The notes under the pieces are model-generated. The model made no database searches. It had not been told where the DNA came from and saw only the letters and a list, made by a program, of their open reading frames with translations. From positions 1-32,763 of the forward strand of contig SVHB01000029.1 of NCBI GenBank assembly GCA_015056005.1: DNA of 32,763 nucleotides. Reading direction: 5' to 3'. Every line of letters begins with the position of its first letter. Positions within the stretch are counted from its first letter, which is position 1. Shown piece by piece: positions 682 to 25,001 of the stretch. This stretch comes from Clostridiales bacterium (GTDB taxonomy: Bacteria; Bacillota; Clostridia; Christensenellales; UBA1750). A program made the translations under genes and the position numbers.

Positions 682-710
682 ATTATATCATCACCCTTAG
701 AAAAGTTAAA
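682..710 (-). promoter_or_regulatory. Extended -10 promoter of the four-helix-bundle/Nudix pair
   Basis: On the minus strand TGATATAAT (TATAAT at 682-687 preceded by TGA) lies about 25 nt upstream of the ATG at 657. The -35 region, TTTAAC 17 nt further up, is poor, so the promoter would depend on the extended -10. It abuts the first heptamer of the palindrome array at 711. Confidence 0.5.
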
Positions 711-880
711 GTGAAATATCCTTCGGATGTGAAATAATGACCTGCGGTCATTGTGAAATATTCGGTGTTCCACCGAATGTGAAATGAAATAAATCCACTC
801 ACGCCCGCAGGCATTTCACACGCCGCAGGCGTATTTCACGCGCGAAGAGCATTTCACAAATCCCGCAAGGGATTTATTTC
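711..880. repeat. Array of mini-palindromes separated by GTGAAAT / ATTTCAC
   Basis: Four GTGAAAT heptamers (711-717, 729-735, 753-759, 779-785) are followed by three in inverse orientation, ATTTCAC (813-819, 833-839, 851-857). Between them lie short palindromes such as ATCCTTCGGAT, AATGACCTGCGGTCATT, ATTCGGTGTTCCACCGAAT and ACGCCGCAGGCGT. GAAATAAATCC (786-796) is exactly complementary to GGATTTATTTC (870-880), so the right half is enclosed in a larger stem. Several loops are of the C-TTCG-G or C-TGCG-G kind. There is no coding potential. It fills most of the gap between the four-helix-bundle gene and the tRNA terminator. Confidence 0.85.
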
Positions 881-883
881 GTT

Positions 884-928
884 GAAAAGAAACACCTTTT
901 GTCAAGTAGACAAAAGGTGTTTCTTTTC
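884..928 (-). terminator. Strong bidirectional terminator after tRNA-Ala
   Basis: A perfect 20-bp inverted repeat (884-903 with 909-928) surrounds a 5-nt loop. The core pairs ACACCTTTTGTC with GACAAAAGGTGT, and the outer part is A-rich in one arm and T-rich in the other, so it can work in both directions. It begins directly after the CCA end of the minus-strand tRNA. Confidence 0.85.
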
Positions 929-7713: not shown

Positions 7714-8688
7714 ATGCTTAAAAAACGTGTTTTATCTTTTGTCCTTTCCGTATCCATTTTATTATGCGGCTGCTCAAAGTCTCAGATCGATACGCCAAAG
7801 GCTTCGCCTTCGCCCACCCCGGGCGTTGTTCAAAAGCTCGGTCTTGAGCTGACAGGAGGCGAGCCTACGCTCAAGGTGTATTTGACCGATACGGAAAAAA
7901 TCGAGACAATGGGCATTGAACAGTATCTACTGGGCGTTCTTGCCGGTGAGATGAAGAACGACTGGCCTATGGAGGCGCTCAAGGCGCAGGCGATAATCGC
8001 GCGCACCTTTGCCGTTAAGTTTCTGATGGACAACGAGTCGTCCAAATACGAGGGCGCGGATATTTCCACGGATATCACCGAAGCGCAGGCGTATAACGCC
8101 GAGGGCATAAACTACCGCATCCGACAGGCGATCGACGAGACGCGCGGGCAGGTGATCACCCATAACGGCGATATCGTATACACCTGGTTTCATTCCCACA
8201 GCGGCGGCATGACCGCGACCGCTGTAGAAGGGCTTGATTACGAGGGCGGCGAGCAGCCATATATCCGGGCAGTGGAATCAAATGAGTCCCCCGATTCGCC
8301 CGAGGAAAACCGCACATGGGCGCAGGCGTTTTCCGCGCAGGATGTCATCGAGGCATGTAAGCAGGTTGGCGTGGATGTTTCTTCAATTTCCGATTTTTCC
8401 ATACATGAAACAGGTCCTTCCGGCAGAGCGACAGTGTTTATGATCGACGGAAAGGAAGTCCCCGCGCCCGCTTTCCGCGTTGCCATAGGCTCTGAAAAGC
8501 TCCGCTCGACCCTGATCGACGATGTTCAGGTCTCCGGTCAGGTCGTGATAATCGCAGGCCGCGGCTACGGTCACGGAGTCGGCATGAGCCAGTGGGGCGC
8601 GTATCAAATGGCCCTTTCGGGCAGCTCCGCCTCCGATATCATCCACCACTACTACCAGGACGTTTCCATCGACCCGCTTTGGGAGTAG
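7714..8688 (+). CDS. SpoIID/LytB-domain lipoprotein (peptidoglycan lytic transglycosylase-like)
   Basis: A 324-residue predicted lipoprotein. Residues 1-17 form a signal peptide and LCGC provides the lipobox (C20), followed by a Ser/Pro/Thr-rich linker. The SpoIID domain starts near residue 55. It shows LLGVLAGEM with E79 at the position of the catalytic glutamate, EALKAQAIIARTFAV, then HSHSGGMTA, and the hallmark GRGYGHGVGMSQWGAYQMA near the C-terminus. SpoIID cleaves denuded glycan strands, in sporulation during engulfment. Homologues outside sporulation act in general wall remodelling, so the gene symbol is left open. The start is fixed by the signal peptide. The apparent Shine-Dalgarno lies inside the smc terminator hairpin, and no strong separate promoter is visible. 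Confidence 0.88.
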   Translation: MLKKRVLSFVLSVSILLCGCSKSQIDTPKASPSPTPGVVQKLGLELTGGEPTLKVYLTDTEKIETMGIEQYLLGVLAGEMKNDWPMEALKAQAIIARTFAVKFLMDNESSKYEGADISTDITEAQAYNAEGINYRIRQAIDETRGQVITHNGDIVYTWFHSHSGGMTATAVEGLDYEGGEQPYIRAVESNESPDSPEENRTWAQAFSAQDVIEACKQVGVDVSSISDFSIHETGPSGRATVFMIDGKEVPAPAFRVAIGSEKLRSTLIDDVQVSGQVVIIAGRGYGHGVGMSQWGAYQMALSGSSASDIIHHYYQDVSIDPLWE

Positions 8689-8698
8689 GGAGGGAGGG

Positions 8699-8832
8699 AC
8701 GTTCGAGAGGTTTCACCTCTCGAGCTCTCTGACCAAGGGTTTGCAACCCTTGGATCCCGCGGCATTTTGTTTGAGTAATTGAATACGTTAGCTTACGAGG
8801 AACCCGTAAAGTATGGGTTCCTCGTGATTTCT
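8699..8832 (-). repeat. Multi-hairpin mobile repeat, inverted copy
   Basis: Read on the minus strand this is a copy of the element at 8850-9027, but with different stem sequences that still pair. Hairpin 1 is CGAGGAACCC / GGGTTCCTCG (8796-8805 with 8815-8824). Hairpin 2 is CCAAGGG / CCCTTGG (8733-8739 with 8747-8753). Hairpin 3 is CGAGAGG / CCTCTCG (8704-8710 with 8716-8722). The linkers AAATCACG, CGTAAGC and the GCCGCGG block are conserved. It begins 11 bases after the SpoIID gene and could also serve as its terminator. Confidence 0.8.
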
Positions 8833-8849
8833 TTTAAGGGAAATTATTC

Positions 8850-9027
8850 TTTTTGGTAGTTACTGATTAACCGCCTGACTCTCTCCAAAAATAAATCACG
8901 CGTGACCCATACTTCACGGGTCACGCGTAAGCCAAAGTATAAAATTTACTGTTCCCAATGCCGCGGAGTCCAGAGGATGCAATCCTCTGGGCCCAGAGCT
9001 CGAGAGGGCGCAGCCATCTCGAACGTA
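8850..9027 (+). repeat. Multi-hairpin mobile repeat, full copy
   Basis: This element is built in order: a TTTTGGTAGTTACTGATTAACC lead-like region; hairpin 1 CGCGTGACCC / GGGTCACGCG (8899-8908 with 8918-8927, loop ATACTTCAC); a linker of about 40 nt ending in GCCGCGGAGT; hairpin 2 CCAGAGG-ATGCAAT-CCTCTGG (8970-8990); and hairpin 3 CGAGAGGGC / GCCATCTCG (9001-9021, one mismatch). The last 67 bases (8961-9027) recur exactly at 9267-9333. There is no plausible coding content. Confidence 0.85.
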
Positions 9028-9042
9028 CCCCCAAAAGTTTGA

Positions 9043-9092
9043 GCGATATAGCCTTCGGCTGCGATATGCGCCTTGCGGCGCGCGATATGTGC
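9043..9092. repeat. Mini-palindrome array with GCGATAT spacers
   Basis: Three GCGATAT heptamers (9043-9049, 9061-9067, 9082-9088) separate the short palindromes AGCCTTCGGCT and GCGCCTTGCGGCGC. The layout equals the GTGAAAT array at 711-880, but with a different heptamer. It lies between two copies of the multi-hairpin element, in the 665-nt gene-free block 8689-9353. The ORF-track frames in this block are only stop-free runs through repeats. Confidence 0.75.
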
Positions 9093-9204
9093 GCGAGACG
9101 GCTTTTTTGCCTTATCAAACAAACCAATTCTTCAGCCGTCATAAATTTCACGAACGAAGAATCCGCGCACGCAAAATACTCCTATCTTTCCTCTCAGCCA
9201 TTCT

Positions 9205-9233
9205 CGATGGCGGCATACCTGCCGCCGCCATCG
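9205..9233. repeat. Perfect 10-bp hairpin
   Basis: CGATGGCGGC (9205-9214) pairs exactly with GCCGCCATCG (9224-9233) across a 9-nt loop. It lies between the GCGATAT array and the half copy of the multi-hairpin repeat. There is no T-tract, so a terminator is unlikely. The rest of 9093-9266 shows no gene. Confidence 0.6.
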
Positions 9234-9266
9234 ACAGCTTCCGCTTGACTTCCTAAAATCCCAAAG

Positions 9267-9333
9267 CCGCGGAGTCCAGAGGATGCAATCCTCTGGGCCC
9301 AGAGCTCGAGAGGGCGCAGCCATCTCGAACGTA
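9267..9333 (+). repeat. Multi-hairpin mobile repeat, 3' half copy
   Basis: 67 bases from CCGCGGAGTCC to CTCGAACGTA are identical to 8961-9027. The copy contains hairpins 2 and 3 and lacks hairpin 1. Exact identity to its neighbour 240 bases away points to a recent local duplication or ongoing conversion. Confidence 0.85.
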
Positions 9334-9353
9334 TCCCCCAAAAAGTCGTCCCC

Positions 9354-10061
9354 CTATTCCCCGTCTCTCAGCCTGAGTGCGAGGTTGGGGTGGCGGGTGG
9401 TGATATTTTGTACGCCTATGGAAAGCAGGAGGGAGATAATTTCCTCGGTATCGGCTGTCCATGCAGAGAGGGAAAGGCCGCTTTCTTTAAGGGCGGGCAG
9501 GGTAAGCTCGGGAACGAGCTCAAGATAGCAAAGGTTGAGCCATGAAAGCCCAAGATCGCGCGCGGCTTTGATATCGACCGAAGCGTTTCCGTCCCTGCGT
9601 ATCTGGCGGGTATTGAGCCACACCTGTGCGTGAAGCTCGGCTGCTGCTGAGAGCTCGTCTAAATCCAAAGGCTCGCCCGTGAACACGATGCGGTCGGCCA
9701 TGGAATACTTTTTTGCGATATCGAGCACATCAAGCGCAAGGCGAGATTCTTTCAGGTCGCAGTTGAGCAGATGCGAGCTTGAGTGGCAAAGCATCTGTAT
9801 GCACTGTTCAAGGGTCGGACCGTCCTGAGCGCTGTCGTGACCCAAGCGCAGAGAGCCGTCTGATGTGCGGCGAACGTCGACCTCAAGTGCATCACAGGGA
9901 ATGTCCATGAGCTTGTTTATGGATTCAAGGGTGTTGGGTTCGGTGTTTTCCGCGCCCGCATGCGCGGTTATAAGGACCTGCGGGCGAGCTTGAAATGCGG
10001 TATCGATCGATAAAGGGCAGGATTCAAAGCCCGAGAGCCACCTGATGTTCAGCTTTTCCAT
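9354..10061 (-). CDS. Glycerophosphodiester phosphodiesterase-like protein, divergent motif
   Basis: A 235-residue TIM-barrel protein of the GDPD superfamily with no signal peptide. The family landmarks are: HAG where HRG is usual (about residues 34-36), followed by EPNTLESI instead of PENTLxAF; ALEVDV-RRTSDG with LGHD, supplying the acidic pair and the second histidine; NCDLK; and a C-terminal WTADTEE...GVQNITTRHP, the counterpart of WTVN...GVDGIITDxP. Family enzymes hydrolyse glycerophosphodiesters to glycerol 3-phosphate and an alcohol. The HRG arginine is replaced and the PENT glutamate displaced, so it may belong to a variant subfamily or have a different substrate. It starts at an ATG preceded by GAGAGGA, diverging from the PHP gene. 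Confidence 0.78.
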   Translation of the reverse strand: MEKLNIRWLSGFESCPLSIDTAFQARPQVLITAHAGAENTEPNTLESINKLMDIPCDALEVDVRRTSDGSLRLGHDSAQDGPTLEQCIQMLCHSSSHLLNCDLKESRLALDVLDIAKKYSMADRIVFTGEPLDLDELSAAAELHAQVWLNTRQIRRDGNASVDIKAARDLGLSWLNLCYLELVPELTLPALKESGLSLSAWTADTEEIISLLLSIGVQNITTRHPNLALRLRDGE

Positions 10062-10162
10062 ATATCTTTTGTCCTCTCTGTAAAACTGTTTCCGATGATT
10101 TTATTATAAACACCAAAGCTTTGGCTTGCAACAATATAAATGTTCCATTTTGCTGTGTTTGA

Positions 10163-10171
10163 TGGTATAAT
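10163..10171 (+). promoter_or_regulatory. Extended -10 promoter before the PHP gene
   Basis: TGGTATAAT (TATAAT at 10166-10171 with TG one base upstream) lies 31 nt before the ATG at 10203. No good -35 lies 17 nt upstream. Between them AGGAG-ATA-CTCCT (10190-10202) is a perfect 5-bp palindrome containing the Shine-Dalgarno directly before the start codon. Confidence 0.55.
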
Positions 10172-10202
10172 CAGCGTGTAAAGACAAAAAGGAGATACTC
10201 CT

Positions 10203-10883
10203 ATGATAAAAATAGAGACTCATTGCCACACTTCGCCCGCAAGCAATTGCGCCAAGGTGAACGTTAGAGATACGCTGACAACGCTCAAAGAGCACGGCTA
10301 TGACGGTGTTTGCATTACAAACCACTACACCTATTATGACTGCATTCCCAGAAGCAACAGAATGATATTTGAAAGAGTCCTGGCCGATTATGAGGAAGCG
10401 AGAAATATCGCGCCTGAGATCGGCATCAAGGTGTTTTTCGGTGCAGAGCTCAGGTTTTACGAAAACGCCAACGATTATCTGCTCTATGGACTTACCCCGC
10501 GGGAGCTTTTTGATTTGGGCAGCGTATATGAGCTTGATCCGGAAAGGTTTTATAAGATCAAGCCCAAGCACGCCGTGTTTTATCAGGCTCACCCGTTCAG
10601 GATCAATATGTTCAGAGCCGATCCAAGATTTTTGGACGGCGTAGAGGTGTATAACGGTCACCCCGGACATGAGAGCAGCAACGAGCTTGCGCTCAAATGG
10701 GCAAAGGAAAATAATAAGCTCATGATATCCGGCTCCGATTTCCACCAGACAGTCGCCGCAGGCGCAGCCGGTATATATGTGGAAAAAATGCCCGAAAACG
10801 AGCGCGAGCTTGCTTTTATGCTCAAAACAGGCGCGTTTACCATGATCACTCCCAAATGGGAAAATACGGATATTATTGTATAA
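10203..10883 (+). CDS. PHP-domain metal-dependent phosphoesterase
   Basis: A 226-residue cytosolic protein consisting essentially of one PHP domain. The metal-binding motifs appear in order: ETHCHTS (residues 4-10), CITNHY, the glutamate of GAELRF, QAHPF, a YNGHPGHE segment and SGSDFHQ. This is the classical set of histidine and acidic ligands for a trinuclear metal site. Stand-alone PHP proteins hydrolyse phosphomonoesters (histidinol phosphate, nucleoside 3',5'-bisphosphates or sugar phosphates), and the exact substrate is not readable. The upstream AAAGGAG fixes the start. It is a single-gene unit followed by repeat-rich DNA. Confidence 0.86.
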   Translation: MIKIETHCHTSPASNCAKVNVRDTLTTLKEHGYDGVCITNHYTYYDCIPRSNRMIFERVLADYEEARNIAPEIGIKVFFGAELRFYENANDYLLYGLTPRELFDLGSVYELDPERFYKIKPKHAVFYQAHPFRINMFRADPRFLDGVEVYNGHPGHESSNELALKWAKENNKLMISGSDFHQTVAAGAAGIYVEKMPENERELAFMLKTGAFTMITPKWENTDIIV

Positions 10884-10912
10884 ATAATGTCGAAATTTGT
10901 ATATAAACGCCC

Positions 10913-10995
10913 TTTTCCACCTCAAAAGGAATGGATTTCCACATAAATAAAGCCGTTTTAGTAGGTTTTGCACATAGTTTTCCACATTTTCCACA
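10913..10995 (+). other. Cluster of DnaA-box-like 9-mers
   Basis: Five same-strand 9-mers resemble the DnaA box TTWTNCACA: TTTTCCACC (10913), ATTTCCACA (10935), TTTTGCACA (10966) and a contiguous tandem pair TTTTCCACA-TTTTCCACA (10978-10995). They lie in an AT-rich stretch directly after the PHP gene. Function is inferred only. No dnaA, dnaN or other origin genes are nearby, so a DnaA-titrating or regulatory site is more likely than the main origin. Confidence 0.5.
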
Positions 10996-11016
10996 GCGAT
11001 GGGGATATTCAGATTG

Positions 11017-11074
11017 GCTTGCTGCGCAAGCAATGATATATTCCTTCAGAATATGATATATGCGCTGTAAGCAT
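11017..11074. repeat. Mini-palindrome array with ATGATAT spacers
   Basis: The palindromes GCTTG-CTGCG-CAAGC (11017-11031), ATTCCTTCAGAAT (11040-11052) and ATGCGCTGTAAGCAT (11060-11074) are separated by ATGATAT (11033-11039 and 11053-11059). This has the same architecture as the other arrays, with a third heptamer. It abuts a truncated multi-hairpin repeat. Confidence 0.7.
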
Positions 11075-11150
11075 GTTTTGGTTAGTAACCACCCTAAAGT
11101 AGAACTCTCCACAAAATAAATCACGAGTGGCCCACAGGGCGGTCGTGTGT
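11075..11150 (+). repeat. Multi-hairpin mobile repeat, degenerate 5' fragment
   Basis: GTTTTGGTTAGTAACCACC...TAAAG followed by AAAATAAATCACGAG matches the 5' part of the copy at 11233 (GTTTTGATTAGTAACCAC...TAAAG...AAATCACG). After that the expected hairpin 1 is degenerate (GGCCC-ACA-GGGC) and similarity stops. GGTT-AGT-AACC is itself a small palindrome. Confidence 0.6.
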
Positions 11151-11162
11151 GTCAAGACCGCA

Positions 11163-11232
11163 GTGAGATACGCCTTGCGGCGTGTGAAGAGTGAAATGTC
11201 CCTGCGGGACGTGAAATATGCGCTGCGCGCAC
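11163..11232. repeat. Mini-palindrome array with GTGAAAT spacers (second site)
   Basis: GTGAGAT (11163), GTGAAAT (11191) and GTGAAAT (11211) alternate with ACGCCTTGCGGCGT, GTCCCTGCGGGAC and ATGCGCTGCGCGCAC. It uses the same heptamer as the array at 711-880, ten kilobases away. It lies directly upstream of the third long copy of the multi-hairpin element. Confidence 0.75.
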
Positions 11233-11410
11233 GTTTTGATTAGTAACCACACTAAAGAATAACCTTCCTAAAAACAAATCACGCGTGACCCATACTTTAC
11301 GGGTCACGCGTAAGCTGCAGTATGAAATTACCTGATCCCAAAGTCTCAGGAATCCAAGGGATGAAATCCCTTGGTGGATGAGGGTGTGGGAGAAGGCAAA
11401 GCCTTCTCCC
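11233..11410 (+). repeat. Multi-hairpin mobile repeat, third long copy
   Basis: This copy is about as long as the one at 8850-9027. It contains GATTAGTAACCAC; hairpin 1 CGCGTGACCC / GGGTCACGCG (11282-11291 with 11301-11310, loop ATACTTTAC); hairpin 2 CCAAGGG-ATGAAAT-CCCTTGG (11354-11374); and hairpin 3 GGGAGAAGGC-AAA-GCCTTCTCCC (11388-11410). Hairpin 3 is quite different in sequence from the other copies but pairs perfectly. It ends 19 bases before the start codon of the next gene and would be in its 5' leader. Confidence 0.85.
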
Positions 11411-11429
11411 AAGAAAGCGAGGATTTCAC

Positions 11430-21105: not shown

Positions 21106-21168
21106 GAAAGAACCCTTCGCGTGAAGCAATGTCATTTAGTTTGTGCAAAACCTGTTAAGTTAAGGGGT
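21106..21168 (+). repeat. Left inverted repeat of the cassette
   Basis: The repeat runs from AAGAACCCTTC through AATGTCATTTAGTT to GTTAAGTTAAGGGGT. The last 15 bases and the AATGTCATTTAGTT block are exactly complementary to parts of 24938-25001. The rest has scattered mismatches and a small length difference. Confidence 0.8.
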
Positions 21169-21172
21169 TAAG

Positions 21173-24800: not shown

Positions 24801-24937
24801 GTGCGTAGTTTTCCTATTCTCTCTTTTCTCTCTAATCTAAAATATCTCTACTAAAAATCGGTTCTCTCTGTTTACTGTAAAGAAAATAATCGTTCTTAAT
24901 CTCTCAAAATGTTTTTAAGGGGCAAACCCGAAGATTT

Positions 24938-25001
24938 ACCCCTTAACTTAACAAGATCTTGAACTAACTAAATGACATTGTCGTGTGAAGGGTTCTTTTT
25001 T
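24938..25001 (-). repeat. Right inverted repeat of the cassette
   Basis: Read on the minus strand it gives AAAGAACCCTTC...AATGTCATTTAGTT...GTTAAGTTAAGGGGT, the counterpart of 21106-21168. It ends nine bases from the stop codon of the aldo/keto reductase gene. Confidence 0.8.

What the first reader, a model, noticed from the sequence alone, without database searches (positions are those of the whole stretch)
8699..11410. Mobile multi-hairpin element with compensating stem changes between copies
At least three long copies (inverted 8699-8832, direct 8850-9027, direct 11233-11410) and two fragments (9267-9333, 11075-11150) share linkers but differ in their stems while keeping the pairing. Hairpin 1 is CGCGTGACCC/GGGTCACGCG in two copies and CGAGGAACCC/GGGTTCCTCG in the third. 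Hairpin 2 is CCAGAGG/CCTCTGG or CCAAGGG/CCCTTGG. Hairpin 3 is CGAGAGG/CCTCTCG or GGGAGAAGGC/GCCTTCTCCC. Compensating double changes show that the structure, not the sequence, is kept. The two longest copies have about equal length. This may be a non-autonomous mobile DNA that moves as folded single strand (REP-like), or a structured RNA family.
Basis: seen in the sequence. Interest (0 to 1): 0.74.

Follow-up and report, generated by a model that had tools for sequence, protein, structure and literature searches.

The report
Dispersed hairpin mosaic carrying gene terminators
This bacterial genome carries about 150 scattered copies of a modular three-hairpin DNA repeat that mostly sits just after gene stop codons and whose first hairpin looks like a transcription terminator; its stems keep changing in matched pairs and its parts have been shuffled between copies.

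Summary
The window holds four full copies and one truncated copy of a roughly 150-nt, three-hairpin unit. The "fragment" 9267-9333 is a full copy with a different hairpin 1. Stems covary strongly: hairpin 1 is perfectly paired in 130 of 139 copies, with 16 stem sequences. The hp3 end abuts genes, mostly just after stop codons; neighbouring copies form 38 divergent, 21 direct and 0 convergent pairs. On the gene strand, hairpin 1 gains G-U/A-U pairs and a U-tract, so it looks like an intrinsic terminator. Copies lacking the U-tract are not biased to gene 3' ends. Hairpin 1 type is independent of hairpins 2 and 3. Five copies share one insert but carry four hairpin 1 stems, so they were copied and then reshuffled. 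Rfam's Gut-1 "sRNA" is a neighbouring module. The hp2-hp3 pair recurs, multi-copy and patchily, in 17 other genomes of the order and in 0 of 119 sampled outside it. No Y1/REP transposase or reverse transcriptase was found. Best reading: a new BOX/BIME/SPRITE-like interspersed mosaic repeat that supplies terminators. Its mode of spread is unknown.

The parts
8699..8848 (-). Copy A, full unit; hp3 at 8704-8722, hp2 at 8733-8753, hp1 about 8793-8827; hp3 end 10 nt after the stop of the SpoIID gene (7714-8688, +)
   Evidence: R1 159 bits; stem positions; gene distance
8793..8827 (+). hp1 of copy A read on the gene strand: 16-pair, 3-nt-loop hairpin followed by TTTCTTTT; predicted terminator of the SpoIID gene
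8875..9026 (+). Copy B, full unit; hp1 8898-8928, hp2 8970-8990, hp3 9001-9021; divergent partner of copy A
   Evidence: R1 155 bits
8896..8930 (-). hp1 of copy B on the gene strand: terminator-like, TTTATTTTTG tail, facing the GDPD gene on the - strand (9354-10061)
9030..9093 (+). Weak Gut-1-like mini-hairpin stretch
   Evidence: Rfam RF01706 25.9 bits, below gathering score
9181..9332 (+).
   Evidence: R1 114 bits
11076..11134 (+). Truncated copy E: leader plus 5' arm of hp1 only
   Evidence: blastn 81% to copy D; family D1
11161..11222 (+). Gut-1-like module on the hp1 side of copy D
   Evidence: Rfam RF01706 47.6 bits, gathering score 50
11258..11414 (+). Copy D, full unit; hp1 11281-11311, hp2 11354-11374, hp3 11388-11410; hp3 end 15 nt before the start of the 11430-12113 gene
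   Evidence: R1 169 bits

Best explanation
It is a genome-wide interspersed mosaic repeat built of swappable hairpin modules: leader or Gut-1-like arrays, hp1, linker, hp2, hp3, then a C-rich or longer tail. SHOWN BY SEQUENCE: about 150 copies; covarying stems; hp3 end next to genes, usually 5-27 nt after a stop codon; hp1 pointing into the spacer; module reshuffling; and, on the gene strand, a terminator-shaped hp1 with a U-tract in the major (A) class. INFERRED: transcription of the abutting gene runs hp3-hp2-hp1 and ends at hp1, so the repeat serves as a portable 3' end (terminator plus 3'-UTR hairpins). Between convergent genes each gene has its own inward-facing copy, which would explain the divergent pairs. 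INFERRED: copies spread by an unidentified trans-acting or recombinational route, and modules are exchanged among copies by gene conversion or template switching, which moves matched stem arms together.
For: Copies. Covariation. Position: 84 of 117 hp3 ends face a gene 3' end, median 20 nt; within 60 nt the split is 64 to 15, binomial P 2e-8, while only 1 of 40 hp1 ends lies within 60 nt of a gene. Orientation: 38 divergent, 0 convergent, 21 direct neighbours. Terminator: T content after hp1 on the gene strand averages 5.3 of 10 against 1.0-1.9 for the other five stem/strand cases; gene-strand hp1 is more stable in 132 of 136 copies because of G-U/A-U extensions; three 16-pair terminator-like sites in the window. 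A-class copies with the U-tract sit at gene 3' against 5' ends 67:16, T-class without it 12:15, Fisher P 0.0005. Shuffling: hp1 is independent of hp2 (P 0.34) and hp3 (P 0.50), while hp2-hp3 are linked; five copies share one ~75-nt insert but have 4 hp1 stems.
Against: There is no RNA-seq, so termination is a prediction. 33 copies lie beside gene starts, where a terminator for the abutting gene makes no sense. hp3 is slightly more stable on the other strand, so not every module follows the gene strand. Gene calls are my own codon-scored ORFs, not curated annotation. Mobility has no empty-site proof, because no congeneric genome was available. The U-tract is interrupted (GATTTATTTT).
Confidence: 0.72

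Rival explanations
1. REP/BIME-type mobile palindromes moved as single-stranded hairpins by a RAYT or other HUH (Y1) transposase, with terminator shape a side effect.
For: Dispersed, intergenic, palindromic, paired in opposite orientation, mostly downstream of genes, as described for REPs (PMC3733652). 54 of 144 tails contain CGTC within about 25 nt after hp3, the tag of one REP superfamily.
Against: No Y1_Tnp in the own assembly, while the same search found it in 5 of 14 control genomes. Unit is 150 nt with three hairpins rather than 20-40 bp. The tag is not constant (41 tails CGT without CGTC, 49 neither). hp1 asymmetry favours the gene strand.
Confidence: 0.1
2. A trans-acting or riboswitch-like RNA family (as Rfam types Gut-1 and Clostridiales-2), conserved for the function of a free structured RNA on the strand drawn by the first reader.
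For: Strong covariation. Gut-1 modules lie next to units: 55 of 67 within 400 nt against 3.8 expected. hp2-hp3 resembles Clostridiales-2 weakly (29.9 bits, cutoff 58.6).
Against: About 150 copies beside unrelated genes; no promoter-like excess in the window region (5 found, 3.4 expected); no U-tract after hp1, hp2 or hp3 on that strand; modules freely reassort.
Confidence: 0.08
3. A composite MITE-like element whose two divergent copies are long terminal inverted repeats around a cargo of mini-hairpins, mobilised by a DDE transposase.
For: 38 divergent pairs with gaps often 250-310 nt and shared Gut-1-like interiors.
Against: Gaps range from 9 to 749 nt, many copies are single, 21 neighbours are direct, and partners usually differ in hp1 (1 of 36 the same). 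Orientation follows the flanking genes. No transposase with matching ends was identified; DDE families were not searched.
Confidence: 0.07
4. Ordinary terminators that look alike by convergence, not a dispersed family.
For: Terminators are common at these places and are GC-rich hairpins (established knowledge).
Against: Linkers, loops, leaders and tails are shared across copies, as is a 75-nt insert.
Confidence: 0.02

Closest known systems
BOX elements of Streptococcus pneumoniae (boxA-boxB(n)-boxC; PMC3049150)
   Same: Composite, modular, intergenic, hairpin-forming, about 150-nt class, lineage-restricted, with tandem duplication of a module (two tail modules in C63 and C92).
   Different: No sequence relation shown; placed next to stop codons with orientation tied to the gene; carries a terminator-shaped hairpin; much stronger stem covariation; no donor IS found.
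SPRITE repeats of S. pneumoniae (PMC3049150)
   Same: Dispersed repeat with a long duplex followed by a U-rich tract, thought to act as a Rho-independent terminator.
   Different: SPRITE is a single loosely folded unit; here there are three hairpins, many alternative stems and mosaic reshuffling.
REP/BIME palindromes (GTAG/CGTC families, RAYT; PMC3733652)
   Same: Downstream of genes, between convergent genes, neighbouring units in opposite orientation.
   Different: Unit length, three hairpins, no constant tag, no Y1 transposase found.
bcr1-bcr18 repeats of the Bacillus cereus group (cited in PMC3446304)
   Same: Families of intergenic repeats, some MITE-like and some with conserved secondary structure, often part of UTRs.
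   Different: Different sequences and host; modular hp1/hp2/hp3 reassortment and stop-codon placement not described in the text read.
Rfam Gut-1 RNA (RF01706)
   Same: Matches the mini-hairpin arrays on the hp1 side; 67 matches in this genome, 9 over the cutoff.
   Different: Rfam types it as an sRNA from human gut samples; here it is a repeated module of the mosaic, not the three-hairpin unit itself.
Rfam Clostridiales-2 RNA (RF02937)
   Same: Two tandem hairpins resembling hp2-hp3.
   Different: No match reaches the cutoff (best 32.8 against 58.6 bits); the conserved linker is absent.

Membership tests
Interspersed mosaic repeat (BOX/BIME kind) | Many dispersed intergenic copies sharing sequence | tested here: met
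   51 blastn and 149 CM matches in one assembly
Interspersed mosaic repeat (BOX/BIME kind) | Composite of modules in varying combination | tested here: met
   hp1 independent of hp2/hp3; insert-tagged subfamily; tandem tail modules
Interspersed mosaic repeat (BOX/BIME kind) | Presence/absence differs among close strains | not testable with these tools
   no congeneric genome held; genome-contig scan gave only distant relatives
REP/REPtron (RAYT-mobilised) | Y1 HUH transposase in the genome | tested here: not met
   PF01797: 0 matches in the 94%-complete assembly; 5 of 14 control genomes positive
REP/REPtron (RAYT-mobilised) | Constant GTAG or CGTC tag at one end | tested here: not met
   CGTC in 54 of 144 tails; GTAG was not counted
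Intrinsic terminator | Stable GC-rich hairpin directly followed by a U-tract on the transcribed strand | tested here: met
   A-class hp1: 100 copies, mean 6.4 T in 11 nt; 16-pair hairpins in the window
Intrinsic terminator | Transcript 3' ends at the U-tract | not testable with these tools
   needs RNA-seq/Term-seq
MITE | Terminal inverted repeats matching a resident transposon, and target-site duplication | not tested
   DDE transposases not searched; no empty sites available
Rfam Gut-1 (for the neighbouring arrays) | Score at or above the gathering score of 50 bits | tested here: met
   9 of 67 genome matches over the cutoff, including window 808-884 (74.2); the two near the units score 47.6 and 25.9
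Rfam Clostridiales-2 | Score at or above the gathering score of 58.6 bits | tested here: not met
   best 32.8 bits in the own genome

The most novel reading that the evidence does not exclude
A class of clostridial mobile terminators: a dispersed element that takes over the 3' ends of genes and whose hairpin stems are rewritten arm-to-arm (both arms changed together, almost no one-sided intermediates) by template-switch or gene conversion. This would generate a pool of interchangeable, mutually different terminators per genome and would show an order-wide, patchy repeat family with independent expansions.
Probability: 0.25. Interest if true: 0.72.

Novelty: new variant of a known kind. Interest (0 to 1): 0.5.

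Why it matters
If the reading holds, a dispersed repeat provides the 3' ends of scores of genes in one gut-type bacterium, so a repeat family helps shape termination genome-wide. It also suggests that the Rfam Gut-1 'sRNA' is, at least here, a repeat module, a caution for structured-RNA discovery in metagenomes, where covariation can come from dispersed repeats. With about 150 copies and 16 perfect hp1 stems, it is a natural data set for asking how palindromes change both arms together.

Tried and rejected
(2) 'Divergent partners never share a stem': looked striking at first (0 of 15), but with all copies it is 1 of 36 against 4.3 expected, P 0.05; kept only as weak. (3) First gene calls by longest ORF gave false antisense ORFs overlapping copies; replaced by codon-scored calls. 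(4) RAYT and reverse-transcriptase partners: none found. (5) IMG/VR scan for the hp1 pattern: 0 hits. (6) Empty sites through SMC or GDPD relatives: too distant and without copies. (7) Filing under Clostridiales-2: below the cutoff. (8) Absence of G-U pairs as proof of a DNA-level function: not decisive, since hp1 uses G-U in its loop and base extensions on the gene strand, and stems may be shared by module exchange. (9) Swapping of hp1 as a whole unit only: stem and loop types are associated, but several loops occur with more than one stem, so unit swapping alone does not explain everything. (10) Paper searches for a published name of this repeat found none in the held open-access library; this is not proof of absence.
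Full report
CHECK OF THE OBSERVATION. The window has four full copies of a roughly 150-nt, three-hairpin unit, at 8699-8848 (-), 8875-9026 (+), 9181-9332 (+) and 11258-11414 (+), and a truncated one at 11076-11134. The window is contig 52 of a 2.50-Mb, 105-contig assembly estimated 94% complete. Own-genome blastn with copy B gives 51 matches. The 147 copies analysed cover 22.8 kb, 0.9% of the assembly.

COVARIATION. On the MAFFT alignment of 54 copies, which was not fitted to the structure, 98.5% of cells pair, 16 of 28 pairs have changes on both sides and 188 cells are double changes; none of 500 shuffles reaches these values and sliding the partners destroys them. With 150 copies aligned to the model, 22 of 28 pairs and 676 cells are double changes (fitted, so leaning). 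Hairpin 1 has 16 distinct perfect stems in 130 of 139 copies and only 9 imperfect ones; nine pairs of stems differ by a single base pair, and only one of the possible one-sided intermediates was seen. Copies are related, so these counts are cells and not independent events.

PLACEMENT. With codon-scored gene calls, the hp3 end faces a gene 3' end in 84 of 117 unobstructed cases, median distance 20 nt, 55 of them within 27 nt of the stop codon; 33 face gene starts at larger distances. Within 60 nt the split is 64 to 15 (P 2e-8), whereas the hp1 end lies within 60 nt of a gene in 1 of 40 cases. Neighbouring copies within 800 nt are divergent 38 times, direct 21 times and convergent never. In the window, copy A starts 10 nt after the SpoIID stop, copy C ends 21 nt from the GDPD stop, and copy D ends 15 nt before a start. 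The short stop-to-hp3 spacer is G-rich on the gene strand (55% G).

TERMINATOR ANATOMY. Counting T in the 10 nt after each stem on each strand, only hp1 read on the gene strand is T-rich: 5.3 against 1.0-1.9 for the others and a background of 2.4. On that strand the loop adds a G-U and further pairs, and the base often adds a U-G and a U-A, so the hairpin is more stable there in 132 of 136 copies. The window scan lists these as 16-pair, 3-nt-loop terminators in copies A, B and D. Two classes exist. A-class stems (100 copies) have 6.4 T in 11 nt and sit at gene 3' against 5' ends 67:16. T-class stems (TCGA..., 32 copies, including copy C) have 2.8 T and split 12:15; Fisher P 0.0005. The association of the U-tract with gene 3' ends is the best argument for terminator function; termination itself was not measured.

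MOSAIC AND COPYING. hp1 type is statistically independent of hp2 (P 0.34) and of hp3 (P 0.50), while hp2 and hp3 are linked. Five copies on different contigs share the same ~75-nt insert between hp1 and hp2, yet carry four hp1 stems and different hp2 and hp3 types: they descend from one tagged ancestor and the hairpins around the tag were exchanged or rewritten later. Tails are modular too, with a ~77-nt tail module duplicated in tandem in two loci. Rfam's Gut-1 (RF01706) corresponds to the mini-hairpin arrays on the hp1 side: 67 matches in this genome, 9 over the cutoff, 55 of them within 400 nt of a unit against 3.8 expected.

DISTRIBUTION. Among 60 relatives, R1 found only weak matches in four genomes, but these show the same tandem hp2-hp3 layout with different stems. 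A model of hp2-hp3 alone (R2) matches 18 of 121 genomes of the order (own genome included), often in many copies, and none of 119 other genomes drawn from the phylum. R2 was built from four of the genomes (G000, G001, G048, G054); matches in genomes not used to build it, such as G018 with 31, G011 with 14 and G004 with 12, are independent of it. The pattern is patchy and multi-copy, as expected of a dispersed repeat with separate expansions, and the full three-hairpin form at high score is so far seen only in this genome. The species name was not determined.

MECHANISM. Best reading (0.72): an interspersed mosaic repeat whose A-class hp1 terminates transcription from the gene that abuts hp3, with hp3 and hp2 as 3'-UTR hairpins. 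How it spreads is not known: no Y1 transposase and no reverse transcriptase were found in an assembly that is not complete, and DDE transposases were not searched. The matched changes of both arms could come from selection on pairing, from exchange of whole hairpins, or from arm-to-arm template switching; stem and loop types are associated but several loops occur with more than one stem, so more than one process is likely.

COMPARISON. Closest in kind are BOX and SPRITE of pneumococcus (PMC3049150), REP/BIME (PMC3733652) and bcr repeats (PMC3446304). REP membership fails on the transposase and on the constant tag; Clostridiales-2 membership fails on score. Filed as a new variant of interspersed mosaic repeats. 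No published name was found in the held library.

Noticed in passing
window 709-790 (+) and 808-884 (-): A divergent pair of Gut-1 matches (45.6 and 74.2 bits) next to a tRNA at 932-1004, with no three-hairpin unit detected beside it; Gut-1 arrays also occur on their own.
   Followed up: partly
window 21127-21171 and 24936-24980: An imperfect 45-bp inverted pair (73%) flanking four minus-strand genes (GNAT, carbon-nitrogen hydrolase, sigma-70-like, unknown), possibly another dispersed repeat or element ends.
   Followed up: partly
G000:C16:29390, C26:43876, C33:15451, C61:3848, C76:6687 (partial C38:29978): The ~75-nt insert shared by five units itself contains two short hairpins (CTCGGGATAAACCCGAG and AACAGTCCACCGGACTGTT), a candidate small inserting element.
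   Followed up: partly
many copies, tail TTCCACATAAATAACTAAAGAACAAAATCTATCTGCCAGGGGAAGAAAAATC: An extended ~77-nt tail module shared by about 14 copies and tandemly duplicated in C63 and C92:24638.
   Followed up: partly
G048, loci L046, L054, L057, L125, L131: In this genome of the same order an AATCCCGAATTTGC..GCAAATTCGGGATTAA hairpin takes the place of hp1 upstream of hp2-hp3, in multiple copies.
   Followed up: partly
window 8699-9332: Partners of divergent pairs rarely share the hp1 stem (1 of 36, expected 4.3, P 0.05); weak, might reflect instability of long perfect inverted repeats or assembly bias.
   Followed up: partly
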